A stretch of DNA of 10,757 nucleotides from a bacterium. Lineage in GTDB: Bacteria; Planctomycetota; J058; JAJDCP01. The stretch lies in the NCBI GenBank assembly GCA_030428695.1, contig JAUIEM010000355.1, forward strand, positions 1 through 10,757, in the 5' to 3' direction. The position numbers were made by a program, and so were the translations under genes. The notes beneath the pieces are model-generated. The model searched no databases. It saw only the letters and a list, made by a program, of their open reading frames with translations, and was not told the DNA's origin. Shown here piece after piece: positions 7,521-10,757 of the stretch (the stretch's first letter is position 1; the number at the start of each line of letters is the position of its first letter).

Positions 7521-7594
7521 GCGCCAGTAGCTCAATTGGATAGAGCATCAGACTTCGGATCTGAGGGTTGGGGGTTCGAGTCCTCCCTGGCGCG
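7521..7594 (+). tRNA. trnR: tRNA-Arg (TCG)
   Basis: The cloverleaf has acceptor GCGCCAG/CTGGCGC, D stem GCTC/GAGC, anticodon stem TCAGA/TCTGA with loop CTTCGGA, and T arm GGGGG-TTCGAGT-CCTCC with one G-T wobble. The anticodon TCG at 7555-7557 reads CGA. The discriminator is G (7594) and CCA is not encoded. Unlike the two tRNAs before it, no terminator follows; instead an integrase gene ends 71 nt further on, pointing at the tRNA. This is the usual arrangement where an integrative element uses a tRNA 3' end as attachment site. Confidence 0.96.
7575..7594 (+). other. Probable attachment-site region (tRNA-Arg 3' end)
   Basis: Tyrosine recombinases often recombine in the T-arm and acceptor region of a tRNA and leave the gene whole. 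The tRNA is intact and the integrase gene faces it at 71 nt. The exact core cannot be set because the other element end is outside the window. A 9-mer TCCCTGGCG from this region (7584-7592) recurs at 7657-7665, next to the integrase stop. Confidence 0.45.
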
Positions 7595-7623
7595 CTTGCT
7601 TCGCGGGAAATCACGATGGGTAG

Positions 7624-7645
7624 GGGTCGCCAAAAGGGTCGCCAA
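7624..7645 (+). repeat. Pair of 10-bp direct repeats near element end
   Basis: GGGTCGCCAA occurs at 7624-7633 and again at 7636-7645, a 12-bp period. They lie between the tRNA 3' end and the integrase stop. Short direct repeats here are what arm-type binding sites of a tyrosine integrase look like. A near copy (GGGTCGCCAG) sits inside the integrase gene close to 7832 and may be chance. Confidence 0.5.
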
Positions 7646-7665: not shown

Positions 7666-9024
7666 TCAAGCGGCTCCGGAGTGCTCGTCCAGTGTCGCCT
7701 GCAGGTCCCGCTCCGCGTCAGCCAGCACCTCGCGCACCGCACAGGCAGAGGCGCGGGGGTCGAAGGCGGTGAAGTCGGTGTAGTGCTTCGCCCCGGTCCC
7801 GGTGATCGATCGGATGACCGCGAGCGTCTGGGGGTCGCCAGTTGCGTGGCCGAGCTGGACGTCGATGGCCTCGCTGGCCACGCCCTTCGCCCGCGCCCAT
7901 GTCCTGTGGGTCTTCTTGAAGCTGTGCACGTCGACGCCCTGCATGCGGGCCGCCCACTCCTCGCCGAAGTCCTCAACGATCGCGAGCGCGGCGCTGTCCG
8001 CCCGGAGGGGCTTCGGAGCGTCGCGCCGGTTGTGCTTCATCGGCGCCGTGAGGGTGCGCAGGGCAGCGTAGAGCGTGCCGATGTCCTCGTCGGGCACGAG
8101 CTCGGCCAGGGCGCCGAGTCCGAAGGACTCGCGCCACCAGTCGAGCACCCGGCAGGCCGCGAGGCGCTTCCCGCGGGGCGAGGGGAGTAGAGGGTCCCGC
8201 CGGTCCCGGTCGAGGATGTGTTCTTCGATCTCGGCCGCGGTCTCGTCGTCGAGGGAGCCGGCGCCGCGACGCTTGTTCTTCGGCCCCTTCCCGAAGTCGA
8301 TGCGCTTCTGTCGGTGGCGGTAGTGCCGGACGTCCCGCTCGCACAGCGACTCGATCCGGGGAGCGGTCACGAGCAGCACCCGCCAGAGCAGGCTGAGGTC
8401 CCGCTTCCAGCCGCGGAGCTGTGCGAGGGCCCGGGCGCCCCACAAGGCCAGGGCGACCTCGGACGGAAGGAAGGCGCGGCGCACGACGCGCACCCGTTCG
8501 TACTGGATCGGCCGCCAGCTTCCGAGCGGGTCGTACTCGAGCACGCGATGATCCTCCGCGAGCCACTTGGACAGCGCGCGGAGCGGGTCCTGGTAGAGCC
8601 GCCGCGCGGTGACGTCGCTCAGGTTGAGACCCTGGATGCCCTTGTTGAGCCGTCCGATGTCGAGCAGGTCGCCGGTGGTCTGCAGGCCGAGCTTGGCGAT
8701 GACCCGGAGGATGTTCGTGCGGCACTGCTTCGGCCAGCTCGACCCGGGCTTGCAGCGCTTCGTCAGGGCCTCGAGCCAGGCCTCTGCAAGCGGTGCAAGG
8801 TCGGCTCGCCAGACCGCATAGTCCGGGAGCCCCGCCCGCTTCCGCTCTATCTCCTCCTGCCAGGCCGCGATGATGCGCGCGGCGATCGCAGGATCTTTGG
8901 TCCCCGTCGAGCGCTGCGGGCGCTTGCTGGGGTTGCTCGGGTCGGTGTAGCGCCACGCGATCGTCCCGTGTCGCGTCCACGTGCACCCGGGCGGCAAGCT
9001 GTCCTTCTTCCGTCTCCTGGGCAT
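7666..9024 (-). CDS. Tyrosine recombinase (integrase)
   Basis: The 452-residue product cuts and rejoins DNA at attachment sites to move the element in and out of the chromosome. Residues about 11-62 look like an arm-type DNA-binding domain (HGTIAWRYTDPSNPSKRPQR, 19-38), about 72-165 like the core-binding helical domain, and about 185-420 like the catalytic domain. Active-site residues that I can place are Arg223 in VTAPRIESL (219-227), a likely beta-turn Lys in GKGPKNKRR (245-253), His367, LGH (391-393), and nucleophile Tyr415 in AKHYTDF (412-418). The usual second Arg of HxxR is Lys370 (HSFK, 367-370), a substitution worth noting. Start ATG 9022-9024 has GGGAGGAG upstream; an in-frame GTG at 9051 lacks one. 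The excisionase frame overlaps its first 178 nt. Confidence 0.9.
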   Translation of the reverse strand: MPRRRKKDSLPPGCTWTRHGTIAWRYTDPSNPSKRPQRSTGTKDPAIAARIIAAWQEEIERKRAGLPDYAVWRADLAPLAEAWLEALTKRCKPGSSWPKQCRTNILRVIAKLGLQTTGDLLDIGRLNKGIQGLNLSDVTARRLYQDPLRALSKWLAEDHRVLEYDPLGSWRPIQYERVRVVRRAFLPSEVALALWGARALAQLRGWKRDLSLLWRVLLVTAPRIESLCERDVRHYRHRQKRIDFGKGPKNKRRGAGSLDDETAAEIEEHILDRDRRDPLLPSPRGKRLAACRVLDWWRESFGLGALAELVPDEDIGTLYAALRTLTAPMKHNRRDAPKPLRADSAALAIVEDFGEEWAARMQGVDVHSFKKTHRTWARAKGVASEAIDVQLGHATGDPQTLAVIRSITGTGAKHYTDFTAFDPRASACAVREVLADAERDLQATLDEHSGAA

Positions 9025-9224
9025 GCTGCGCTCCTCCCGCCTCTGATCCACTGTAGGAGATCGGCGCGCAGAAAGTGGAGCGCACCGGCCGGCGGCGGGA
9101 CGTGGCGTGCGATCGCCGCCAGCCCGGTGTCGGGATCGTCCAGCCAGCGGTAGACCGTGCGCGTGCTCTTTCCGAGCAGCGCAGCGGCATCCGCGAGCGT
9201 CAGGAGCTCAGGCTGGACGTCCAC
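8847..9224 (-). CDS. Small HTH protein, excisionase type
   Basis: The start is GTG at 9222-9224 with GGGAG upstream, inside the end of the preceding gene. Residues 8-63 are a MerR/excisionase-like winged helix-turn-helix (HTH_17 type): LTLADAAALLGKSTRTVYRW (8-27), a wing with VPPPAGALHF (42-51), then LRADLLQWI (52-60). Such proteins bend DNA at attachment sites to favour excision, or regulate the element. The domain is complete by residue about 63. The frame then stays open to residue 125 with an Arg/Pro/Gly-rich sequence because it runs over the integrase gene in another frame. That tail looks like non-selected out-of-frame coding, but no earlier stop exists, so it should be translated. A recombination directionality factor is the best guess; a repressor is possible. 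Confidence 0.75.
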   Translation of the reverse strand: MDVQPELLTLADAAALLGKSTRTVYRWLDDPDTGLAAIARHVPPPAGALHFLRADLLQWIRGGRSAACPGDGRRTACRPGARGRDTGRSRGATPTRATPASARSARRGPKILRSPRASSRPGRRR

Positions 9225-9227
9225 GCG

Positions 9228-9674
9228 CTACTCCCGTCCCCCGAACTGCTCGCGCACCGTCCGCGCAGCCTCGCCAGCGTGCAGGCCGCGGGCGAGCAAG
9301 GCCGGATCCACGGTGCCGCGCGGCTTCGCCCACAACCCGCGATAGACGTCGAAGAACTCGAGCACCCGGGCCAGCGGCGCCATGTCGTGCATGACCATGA
9401 AGCTGTCGAAGGCCTCGACAAGGGCGAGCTGGTCACGCGTCCAGCCGACACCGGCGAGCACGTTGTCGAGGGCCTCGAGCTCGGGGCCGCGATCGCGGAC
9501 GACCCACTCGAGCACGTCGATCTCGGCACGCGGGCACTCGATCTCGAACGCGTCGAGGATCGACGTGACCGGCATCGCGAGGCTGCCGTCGGGAAGGTGC
9601 TCGACCGCAAGCGGGCTGTCCGGCCACTCGATTCGGGTTGTCTTCGTCGAACAAGGGATCAGGGGTGTTTGCAC
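9228..9674 (-). CDS. Unrecognised 148-residue protein of the element
   Basis: The start is GTG at 9672-9674 with AGGAGGG upstream, and the stop lies 3 nt before the excisionase start, so these two genes are translationally linked. I do not recognise the family. The protein is acidic and mainly helical, with hydrophobic stretches around LAMPVTSILDAFEI (32-45) and an amphipathic segment around LALVEAFDSFMVMHDMAPL (83-101). It has no signal peptide, no membrane segment, no clear zinc or nucleotide motif and no evident HTH. The residue pattern and third-position GC bias look like true coding. Position between a replication-type gene and excisionase suggests an element-maintenance, regulatory or phage-interaction role, but this is guesswork. 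The GTAGAC repeat array lies upstream of it and may control it. Confidence 0.75.
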   Translation of the reverse strand: MQTPLIPCSTKTTRIEWPDSPLAVEHLPDGSLAMPVTSILDAFEIECPRAEIDVLEWVVRDRGPELEALDNVLAGVGWTRDQLALVEAFDSFMVMHDMAPLARVLEFFDVYRGLWAKPRGTVDPALLARGLHAGEAARTVREQFGGRE

Positions 9675-9693
9675 GGTACCCTCCTTGGAGGCT

Positions 9694-9811
9694 GTCTACT
9701 AACGTGGCGATTCCGCGGACAAACTTCGGCGACGTAAGGACTTGCGATTGTCTATTTCGTGTCTACTGGGCCGCTACTGCGCGTCTACCCGGCGTCTACG
9801 GAGCCGTCTAC
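9694..9811 (-). repeat. Phased GTAGAC repeat array (iteron- or operator-like)
   Basis: Read on the minus strand, GTAGAC or a one- to two-base variant starts at 9811, 9799, 9788, 9777 (GTAGCG), 9766 and 9755 (ATAGAC), at steps of 12, 11, 11, 11 and 11 bp. A further GTAGAC starts at 9699, 56 bp on, close to five helical turns. All therefore lie on about the same DNA face. The stop codon of the DUF3987 gene (9785-9787) is inside one copy. The stretch from about 9700 to 9765 is visibly richer in A and T than its surroundings. Replication iterons, a cooperative repressor operator, or recombinase/excisionase sites all fit. Confidence 0.75.
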
Positions 9812-10757
9812 GAAGTCCCCGAGTTGGGGATGCAGGTGGTAGAAGCTCGGCTTGCCTGCCTTCGACTTCTCCGAAGCGCGCACCCAGCCGAAGCTCTCGA
9901 GCTCGCCCAGGAGTCGGCGGATCTCCCCGGCCTTGGGCGGGACGCGCCGCTTGGCGTAGCGTTGGATCCACGCCGGTTTGACCTTGCTGGCATCGACCGC
10001 GAGCTTTTCGGCGCGCGCGGGCCACTCCTCAGCCAGCCAGCGAAGCAGCTCGCGGCCGTGGCGCTGGCGCGCGTCGTGTCCGCGCTCCTGCTCCAGGACG
10101 CGGTAGAGCTCGATCGCGTGCGGCCAATAGAACGTCTTCACGAGCTGGATGGCCCGGGCCATGGTCTCGCCCTCGACGGTCAGATCTTGCCCGCGCGGCG
10201 TCAGCATCACCTGCAGGACACCGGCCAGGCGGCCGATGTGGTCGGAGGCCTTCGTTGTCCAGTCGGGCATGGTCTGGCGCTCGGGGCGCTTGAAGAACCA
10301 GCCCTTGGCCTCGCGCCACAGGCGGTCGGCCTCGGCCGACAACCTCAGCATGTGGGCCGTGTTCCCGAGCGGGGCTGGGAGGGTCACGAGCGTTCGCAGC
10401 CAACCGCGGTAGGTCTCGATCACCGCGCCGGGGATGTCGTCCTCCGGGCGGGGAGTGTGCCGATCCACAAGAGGGGCGAAGCACGGCAGGAAGCGCGCGG
10501 ACAGACCTTCGGCCTTGTATTCTTCGCCGCGCTTCGCCGCGAGCTCGCGGAGCGTGTCCGGTTGGATCGCCTGCAGGATCGCGAGGGAGGCGTTCGGGAT
10601 GACGTAGTGGACGCCATCGGTCTTCTGCTTGCCCTTCCTGGCGACCGCAACGCGCCCGCCGTCCCACGCGTTCTTCGTCAGGTCGAAGTGCGGCTTGCTG
10701 CCGTAGAAGCCGCTGATGATCTTCAAGAACCGGCCCTCGGCGCCGACGATGTTCATG
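9785..10757 (-). CDS. DUF3987 domain protein, C-terminal part (N-terminus beyond window)
   Basis: At least 323 codons are open to the window edge. The ATG at 10754-10756 lies within the domain and is most likely an internal methionine. The visible part has the usual DUF3987 order: RFLKIISGFYG (9-19), a DLTKNAWDGGRV stretch (25-36), PNASLAILQAIQPDTLREL (54-72) and GLSARFLPCFAP (84-95), with a helical region after it. The fragment ends in a winged-helix-like segment (WIQRYAKRR to HLHPQL, 263-312). DUF3987 proteins are linked to P-loop primase/helicase modules in phages, satellites and islands and are thought to act in element replication. The missing N-terminal part should hold the Walker motifs. 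The 3' end of the gene lies inside the phased GTAGAC array, so its last codons (including two Val-Asp pairs) are set by the repeats. Confidence 0.82.
   Translation of the reverse strand, partial: MNIVGAEGRFLKIISGFYGSKPHFDLTKNAWDGGRVAVARKGKQKTDGVHYVIPNASLAILQAIQPDTLRELAAKRGEEYKAEGLSARFLPCFAPLVDRHTPRPEDDIPGAVIETYRGWLRTLVTLPAPLGNTAHMLRLSAEADRLWREAKGWFFKRPERQTMPDWTTKASDHIGRLAGVLQVMLTPRGQDLTVEGETMARAIQLVKTFYWPHAIELYRVLEQERGHDARQRHGRELLRWLAEEWPARAEKLAVDASKVKPAWIQRYAKRRVPPKAGEIRRLLGELESFGWVRASEKSKAGKPSFYHLHPQLGDFVDGSVDAG

What the first reader, a model, noticed from the sequence alone, without database searches (positions are those of the whole stretch)
9689..9811. Helically phased GTAGAC array between a replication-type gene and an unknown gene
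Six units at 11, 11, 11, 11 and 12 bp steps plus one isolated copy 56 bp away is far from random and puts all copies on nearly one DNA face. It sits in the main gap of the element, overlaps the stop codon of the DUF3987 gene and is bordered by an A/T-richer stretch. This fits an iteron origin with an unwinding region, or an operator for a cooperative regulator. I do not know this repeat from any described system.
Basis: partly seen in the sequence, partly recalled or inferred. Interest (0 to 1): 0.75.

Follow-up and report, generated by a model that had tools for sequence, protein, structure and literature searches.

The report
Replication-start repeats behind a helicase gene
A small mobile element in what is probably a Planctomycetes bacterium carries evenly spaced copies of a six-letter DNA word at the very end of its helicase gene, most likely the sites where that helicase begins copying the element, an arrangement known from Staphylococcus islands.

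Summary
The repeat is real: on the minus strand four exact GTAGAC units, one ATAGAC and one degenerate GTAGCG at 12, 11, 11, 11, 11 bp steps, plus an exact copy 56 bp on. 0 of 300 shuffles give four phased copies of any hexamer. Unit 3 supplies the TAG stop codon of the DUF3987 gene, and the array adjoins the lowest-GC 50 bp of the visible element.

The element (integrase, HTH_17, unknown ORF, DUF3987) lies at tRNA-Arg. The precedent is SaPI and SCCmec, whose helicases bind iterons just downstream of their own genes. GTAGAC recurs in the last 200 nt of other DUF3987 genes: 7 of 62 planctomycete loci against 28 of 1700 control tiles (p=1.5e-4), and 2 of 4 virus-database loci.

Against: most DUF3987 genes show no clear array; where repeats occur the step is usually 9 bp, and 11 is not enriched; no close relative with context was found; 11-bp phased arrays of other hexamers are as common in viral DNA; protein-level effects are not fully excluded.

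Best reading: iteron origin bound by the DUF3987 helicase (0.6). Main rival: an operator for the int operon (0.22).

The parts
9806..9811 (-). iteron unit 1, GTAGAC, inside the DUF3987 coding tail
9794..9799 (-). iteron unit 2, GTAGAC, inside the DUF3987 coding tail
9783..9788 (-). iteron unit 3, GTAGAC; contains the TAG stop codon of the DUF3987 gene
9772..9777 (-). degenerate unit 4, GTAGCG (2 mismatches) in register
9761..9766 (-). iteron unit 5, GTAGAC
9750..9755 (-). unit 6, ATAGAC (1 mismatch)
9700..9749 (.). A/T-richer spacer, candidate unwinding region (54% GC; the lowest-GC 50 bp of the visible element starts at 9718, 46%)
9694..9699 (-). isolated unit 7, GTAGAC, on the other side of the spacer and just upstream of the ribosome-binding site of the 148-aa ORF
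9785..10756 (-). DUF3987 gene, 3' part (323 aa seen; the 5' part is outside the window); proposed self-loading helicase that binds the array
   Evidence: Pfam PF13148 E=2.2e-32, covering profile positions 148-362 of 364; PHROG 2373 'DNA helicase' E=3.8e-15
9228..9674 (-). 148-aa ORF of unknown function, first gene after the array; coding-like GC by codon position (0.72/0.46/0.88)
   Evidence: no relative found but itself
8847..9224 (-). HTH_17 (excisionase/AlpA-type) ORF; the domain match is residues 7-63
   Evidence: PF12728 31.9 bits, cut-off 27; PHROG 66 'excisionase and transcriptional regulator' E=7.2e-7
7666..9051 (-). tyrosine-type integrase
   Evidence: PHROG 1 integrase E=1.6e-14; relatives
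7521..7595 (+). tRNA-Arg (tcg), presumed attachment gene next to the integrase
   Evidence: attachment is inferred, the other end of the element is not in the window

Best explanation
The array is the initiator-binding half of the element's own replication origin. The DUF3987 protein, a predicted helicase, would bind the GTAGAC iterons that overlap the 3' end of its own gene through its C-terminal part, assemble there in helical register, melt the adjacent A/T-richer 50 bp (with the lone GTAGAC on its far side) and load on the exposed strand, so that the excised element is copied. Shown here: the repeats, their register, the stop-codon overlap, the composition dip, the gene set, and the recurrence of GTAGAC at other DUF3987 3' ends. 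Inferred: binding, melting, helicase loading and replication.
For: Architecture: six phased units, spacer of low GC, lone unit, all at the 3' end of a DUF3987 gene. Family: PF13148 and 'DNA helicase' PHROG matches; DUF3987 is predicted to be a mobile-element helicase (PMC5862659, passages). Precedent: in PICIs the region immediately 3' of the rep gene is the origin, with two iteron sets flanking an AT-rich region (PMC6092414, passages); SaPI Rep recognises such iterons with its C-terminal domain, and SCCmec Cch2 binds three short direct repeats just downstream of its gene through its C-terminal domain (PMC7581432, passages). Comparative: GTAGAC in the last 200 nt of 7 of 62 other DUF3987 genes against 28 of 1700 control tiles, p=1.5e-4; the carriers are 30-50% identical to one another and are followed by different genes. 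Share of GTAGAC among Val-Asp codon pairs: tail 9 of 31, body 7 of 124, p=7e-4. GTAGAC in 2 of 4 virus-database DUF3987 loci, three copies in L411. L310 has GTGGAC/GTAGAC repeats in its coding tail and a second, inverted GTCTAC set about 280-320 nt after the stop. With no hexamer named beforehand, GTAGAC is the most over-represented one in the 3' region of L310, L307 and the window. The array does not fold: z -0.01 to 0.97 in the four tiles from -100 to +50.
Against: Most DUF3987 3' ends have no clear exact-hexamer cluster: over 66 loci the overall shift is not significant (p=0.11), only the extreme scores are (z>=8: 5 of 66 against 20 of 1331, p=0.005). Where short repeats occur the step is 9 bp (14 of 62 against 133 of 2164 tiles); lag 11 is not enriched (2 of 62 against 40 of 2164). 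All 9 tail copies of GTAGAC are in frame, Val-Asp is itself commoner in tails (31 against 19.9 expected) and GTGGAT is enriched too (8 against 2.25), so part of the signal may be protein-level. GTAGAC is only fifth among hexamers enriched there. The window has one clear iteron set and one lone copy, not two sets. E. coli CP4-57, with the same gene families, shows no array after yfjI. The window's DUF3987 is only about 25% identical to the GTAGAC carriers that it matches.
Confidence: 0.6

Rival explanations
1. Operator: the array is a cooperative binding site for the HTH_17 (AlpA/Xis-type) protein or the 148-aa protein, controlling the 148-aa - HTH - integrase operon, with filament-like binding along one helical side.
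For: The array lies directly upstream of that operon, the lone copy ends about 20 bp before the 148-aa start codon, and an HTH_17 protein is encoded in it. Helical register suits cooperative binding (phage Cox/Xis-type proteins, recalled, not tested).
Against: GTAGAC goes with the DUF3987 3' end in loci whose next gene differs, e.g. an ORF that looks like an integrase in L268 and ORFs of other kinds in L282, L290 and L310 (these ORFs were judged by eye). No sigma-70-like promoter was found in 9550-9950, though other promoter types are not covered.
Confidence: 0.22
2. Coding-tail repeat: the array is a by-product of a repetitive, acidic C-terminal tail of DUF3987 (VD-containing) or of slippage, without DNA function.
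For: Tails of DUF3987 proteins are variable and repetitive, tail copies of GTAGAC are all in frame, and Val-Asp is commoner in tails.
Against: In the window only three of seven units touch the gene; the rest lie after the stop, at 11-bp steps that would not keep a frame. GTAGAC is over-represented among Val-Asp codings in tails (p=7e-4), while GTGGAC and GTCGAC are not enriched (p=1, 0.41). Spacers between units differ, unlike a perfect tandem repeat. Repeat clusters also lie after the stop in L261, L297, L409 and L310.
Confidence: 0.1
3. Integrase arm-type sites or an excision-control site.
For: Arm-type sites can come as tandem short repeats (recalled); the array is on an element with a tyrosine-type integrase.
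Against: It is about 2.1 kb from the presumed attachment site at tRNA-Arg. A separate pair of GGGTCGCCAA repeats (7624-7633, 7636-7645) lies beside the tRNA and suits that role better. Among the 16 regions fetched around the best integrase relatives (L235-L250) none has a GTAGAC array; one has a weak 3-copy 10/11-bp repeat and one a GGGCAG repeat at 22-23 bp.
Confidence: 0.05

Closest known systems
SaPI / PICI replication origins (pri-rep-ori)
   Same: Short direct repeats immediately 3' of the initiator-helicase gene, beside an AT-rich stretch; integrative element with integrase and excisionase-type gene (passages of PMC6092414; PMC7581432).
   Different: PICI origins are described with two iteron sets flanking the AT-rich region; here one set and a single copy. 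The helicase is of the DUF3987 family. No repressor, packaging or interference genes can be seen in the window.
SCCmec pattern-2 putative origin (Cch2 helicase, AAGTG iterons)
   Same: Direct repeats between a helicase gene and a recombinase gene; bound by the helicase's C-terminal domain (passages of PMC7581432).
   Different: The iteron is GTAGAC, not AAGTG; here there are seven units, not three; tyrosine-type integrase and HTH in place of ccrC; binding untested.
PICMI satellites of Vibrionaceae
   Same: Core of integrase, AlpA (models PF05930/PF12728) and a DUF3987/DUF5906 primase (passage of PMC10803314); the window has integrase, PF12728 and PF13148 genes.
   Different: PICMIs sit at fis in Vibrionaceae; this element sits at tRNA-Arg in a probable planctomycete. 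The word iteron does not occur in that paper's main text.
E. coli prophage CP4-57 (intA-alpA-yfjI)
   Same: Integrase, AlpA and DUF3987 genes.
   Different: Integrase and alpA lie upstream of the DUF3987 gene, not downstream, and no phased array follows yfjI.

Membership tests
Iteron-type origin of the SaPI/PICI layout | several copies of one short repeat in direct orientation | tested here: met
   Four exact, one 1-mismatch, one 2-mismatch and one isolated exact copy; 0 of 300 shuffles match
Iteron-type origin of the SaPI/PICI layout | location immediately 3' of the initiator/helicase gene | tested here: met
   Array overlaps the stop of a PF13148 gene
Iteron-type origin of the SaPI/PICI layout | two iteron sets flanking an AT-rich region | tested here: inconclusive
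   One set of six, a 50-bp dip to 54% GC, then a single copy
Iteron-type origin of the SaPI/PICI layout | initiator binds the iterons and the region drives autonomous replication | not testable with these tools
   No binding or replication data
PICMI satellite | integrase + AlpA (PF05930/PF12728) + DUF3987 gene | tested here: met
   PF12728 and PF13148 above cut-off; integrase by PHROG only (no Pfam integrase match above cut-off)
PICMI satellite | insertion at the fis gene of Vibrionaceae | tested here: not met
   tRNA-Arg beside the integrase; relatives are planctomycetes
Phage satellite (any) | induction and packaging by a helper phage | not testable with these tools
   Most of the element is outside the window
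Tyrosine-integrase arm-type sites | close to the attachment core | tested here: not met
   About 2.1 kb from tRNA-Arg

The most novel reading that the evidence does not exclude
DUF3987 helicases are self-origin initiators as a family: each reads a short iteron cluster placed in the variable, coding 3' tail of its own gene and just beyond it, so that initiator and origin travel as one unit and even share letters (here an iteron supplies the stop codon). The iteron sequence differs between lineages, and GTAGAC and its GTRGAC variants are one recurring type.
Probability: 0.4. Interest if true: 0.62.

Novelty: new variant of a known kind. Interest (0 to 1): 0.45.

Why it matters
DUF3987 is a large family with an unknown-function label that is found in satellites, prophages and integrative elements: 84 of 392 planctomycete genomes searched have it above cut-off. 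If its genes carry their own iterons in the 3' tail, the origin of many unstudied elements can be read from sequence, and the family gets a testable role as self-loading initiator helicase.

Tried and rejected
GTAGAC as a phage-wide motif. Controls removed the hexamer-specific part: exact 11/11 steps gave 44 stretches for GTAGAC against 33, 56 and 35 for three other hexamers. None of 50 virus records with GTAGAC arrays has a DUF3987 gene. Proteins within 1 kb of 34 such arrays include primases, helicases, terminases and integrases; I prepared but did not scan a set of distant proteins, so this is uncontrolled. Of 10 neighbours scanned one by one, 4 match helicase/primase families, 2 terminases, 1 integrase, 3 nothing.

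GTAGAC arrays in planctomycete chromosomes: 1 of 392 genomes, a perfect 12-bp tandem, while the pattern read backwards rings in 13 by my count of the table. So the hexamer array is not a feature of the phylum.

Close relatives: none for DUF3987 or the 148-aa ORF. The best integrase relative (P0003, 69%) could not be placed in a genome. Distant DUF3987 loci (14 of 392) have no phased hexamer of four or more copies within about 1.5 kb (15 loci with L186). Of 22 loci examined, 20 fetched regions plus L182 and L183, two loci that hold the same site (L183, L240) have a GGGCAG repeat at 22-23 bp and one (L246) a weak 3-copy repeat.

RNA: no Rfam family of note in 9500-10000, and no unusual fold at the array. 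AlphaFold models of the DUF3987 part and the 148-aa ORF, without alignments, are too poor to use (mean pLDDT 44.6 and 42.8); no fold search was made with them. Literature searches brought no listing that shows a GTAGAC iteron or an iteron beside a DUF3987 gene; most listed papers were not opened.

Full report
What is there. The finding is real. Read on the minus strand, the array starts inside the DUF3987 gene and runs past its stop: GTAGAC, GTAGAC, GTAGAC, GTAGCG, GTAGAC, ATAGAC at 12, 11, 11, 11 and 11 bp steps, then a lone GTAGAC 56 bp further on. The letters between the units differ, so this is not a perfect tandem repeat. None of 300 dinucleotide shuffles of the window has four or more copies of any hexamer at one period between 8 and 14 bp. 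Unit 3 contains the TAG that stops the DUF3987 frame. The 50 bp between unit 6 and the lone copy are 54% GC, and the lowest-GC 50 bp of the visible element starts at 9718 (46%); the window is 71% GC. At 10.5 bp per turn the six tandem units spread over 120 degrees, so they wind slowly round the helix instead of lying exactly on one face.

The element. Minus-strand order is DUF3987 (PF13148, E=2.2e-32; PHROG 'DNA helicase'), the array, a 148-aa ORF with no relative found but itself, an HTH_17 ORF (PF12728, above cut-off), an integrase (PHROG 1), then tRNA-Arg on the plus strand. The window holds no whole genome record. Integrase relatives were found in a Planctomycetota MAG (L182, 39% identity) and in a MAG titled only 'uncultured bacterium', whose genome is counted in the same phylum by the later searches (G052). 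The host is therefore probably a planctomycete. A 69% relative exists (P0003) but its neighbourhood could not be fetched.

Is the hexamer a known motif? But exact 11/11 triples give 44 stretches for GTAGAC and 33, 56 and 35 for three control hexamers. Phased 11-bp arrays are thus a general habit of viral DNA, not a mark of this hexamer. In 392 planctomycete genomes the pattern occurs in one, as a perfect 12-bp tandem. None of 50 array-bearing virus records encodes DUF3987.

The comparative test. I took 64 of the strongest PF13148 places in planctomycete genomes (60 newly fetched, 4 already held; some partial or contig-end rows were skipped), and dropped two whose frame had no stop before the contig end, leaving 62. 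Most have no obvious exact repeat at the 3' end. Yet GTAGAC stands in the last 200 nt of 7 of 62 genes against 28 of 1700 control tiles of the same loci (p=1.5e-4). The seven are 30-50% identical to one another and are followed by different ORFs. Examples: L282 has GTCTAC twice, then GTAGAC twice 50 nt on; L307 has GTCTAC, then GTAGAC twice; L268 has GTCTAC, an AACCCC...GGGGTT-type inverted repeat, then GTAGAC; L310 has GTGGAC repeats with one GTAGAC in the tail and a second cluster of four GTCTAC facing two GTAGAC 278-359 nt after the stop. With no hexamer named beforehand, GTAGAC is the top hexamer of the 3' region in L310, L307 and the window. In a further set of four virus-database DUF3987 loci two carry it, one in three copies (binomial 0.0016). 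That set was found with a profile built from six genes, two of them GTAGAC carriers, so it is not fully independent.

DNA or protein? All nine tail copies are in frame and read Val-Asp. Val-Asp is commoner in tails (31 against 19.9 expected) and one other coding, GTGGAT, is also enriched (8 against 2.25). Still, GTAGAC makes up 9 of 31 Val-Asp pairs in tails and 7 of 124 in the rest of the genes (p=7e-4), and GTGGAC and GTCGAC are not enriched by locus (p=1 and 0.41) (all). The frame out of phase by two would put a stop in the gene, which is what happens once, at the right place, in the window. Other repeat types also lie after the stop, e.g. TTCTGTCAC in L261, AGTCACAC in L297, AACGAAA in L409, ACGGT in L294. 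I read this as mainly DNA-level, with a protein-level share not excluded.

Spacing. The family-wide signal is a 9-bp step (14 of 62 loci against 133 of 2164 tiles); 11 bp is not enriched (2 of 62 against 40 of 2164). The window's 11-bp register is therefore its own. A possible reason, inferred, is that inside a gene repeats must keep the frame, while most of the window's array lies beyond the stop.

Mechanism. The closest described cases are SaPI and SCCmec. In PICIs the origin is the region immediately 3' of the initiator gene, with iterons flanking an AT-rich stretch (PMC6092414, passages). SaPI Rep reads its iterons with its C-terminal domain, and SCCmec Cch2 binds three direct repeats between its gene and the recombinase gene, also through its C-terminal domain (PMC7581432, passages). 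DUF3987 has been predicted to be a mobile-element helicase (PMC5862659, passages), and the satellite family PICMI uses integrase, AlpA and a DUF3987/DUF5906 primase whose deletion lowers copy number (PMC10803314, passages). On this basis I propose that the DUF3987 protein binds the GTAGAC units at the end of its own gene and opens the A/T-richer spacer. In the alignment of 19 DUF3987 proteins the conserved part ends in a GGRPxxxF motif followed by the variable tail in which the repeats lie; that the part before the tail is a winged helix is my reading and was not shown, since the models were too poor.

Rivals. An operator for the 148-aa/HTH/int operon is the main one: the lone unit lies just upstream of its first ribosome-binding site. 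It is weakened by the recurrence of GTAGAC behind DUF3987 genes with other neighbours, but nothing here excludes it, and both uses could be combined. Integrase arm sites are unlikely at 2.1 kb from the tRNA, where another repeat pair, GGGTCGCCAA, lies. A mere coding-tail repeat does not explain the four units beyond the stop.

Verdict. A real, probably functional iteron array; a new variant of a known kind of origin. Its use as an origin rests on position, composition, precedent and a modest comparative signal; no binding or replication was tested.

Noticed in passing
window 7624-7633 and 7636-7645: Direct repeat GGGTCGCCAA, 12 bp apart, between the integrase stop and tRNA-Arg; candidate integrase arm-type or attachment-site repeat.
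   Followed up: partly
L294 (about -60 to +200 of the DUF3987 stop): Dense ACGGT[T/A/G] repeats, 15 non-overlapping AACCGT/ACGGTT in the 500-nt region, behind a DUF3987 gene.
   Followed up: partly
L297 (+14 to +180 of the DUF3987 stop): Many AGTCACAC/GTGTGAC repeats in both orientations behind a DUF3987 gene.
   Followed up: partly
L409 (+6 to +100 of the DUF3987 stop): Three AACGAAA repeats after the stop and one inverted copy at +95, in a virus-database DUF3987 locus.
   Followed up: no
3' ends of L268, L269, L284, L259 and others: GGGGGTT, GGGTTCC and AACCCC are the most enriched words in the last 120 nt of DUF3987 genes (GGGGGT 17 against 1.36 expected, 12 loci); they form inverted repeats, sometimes round GCCAGAGC, which is unexplained.
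   Followed up: partly
L011, L049, L066, L097, L101: Five virus contigs with GTAGACCATAT-type 11-bp arrays 2 bp from the end of a primase/helicase-like gene; the array is on the strand opposite to the gene.
   Followed up: partly
L003, L085, L098: GC-rich virus contigs with two GTAGACACC arrays in opposite orientation close together, with a GCAGGTCA motif between units; may be an origin or regulatory site.
   Followed up: no
L022 10230-10257: Perfect GTAGACAAAGG 11-bp triple about 210 bp beyond the 3' end of a helicase-like gene (phrog_256), upstream of a small ORF.
   Followed up: no
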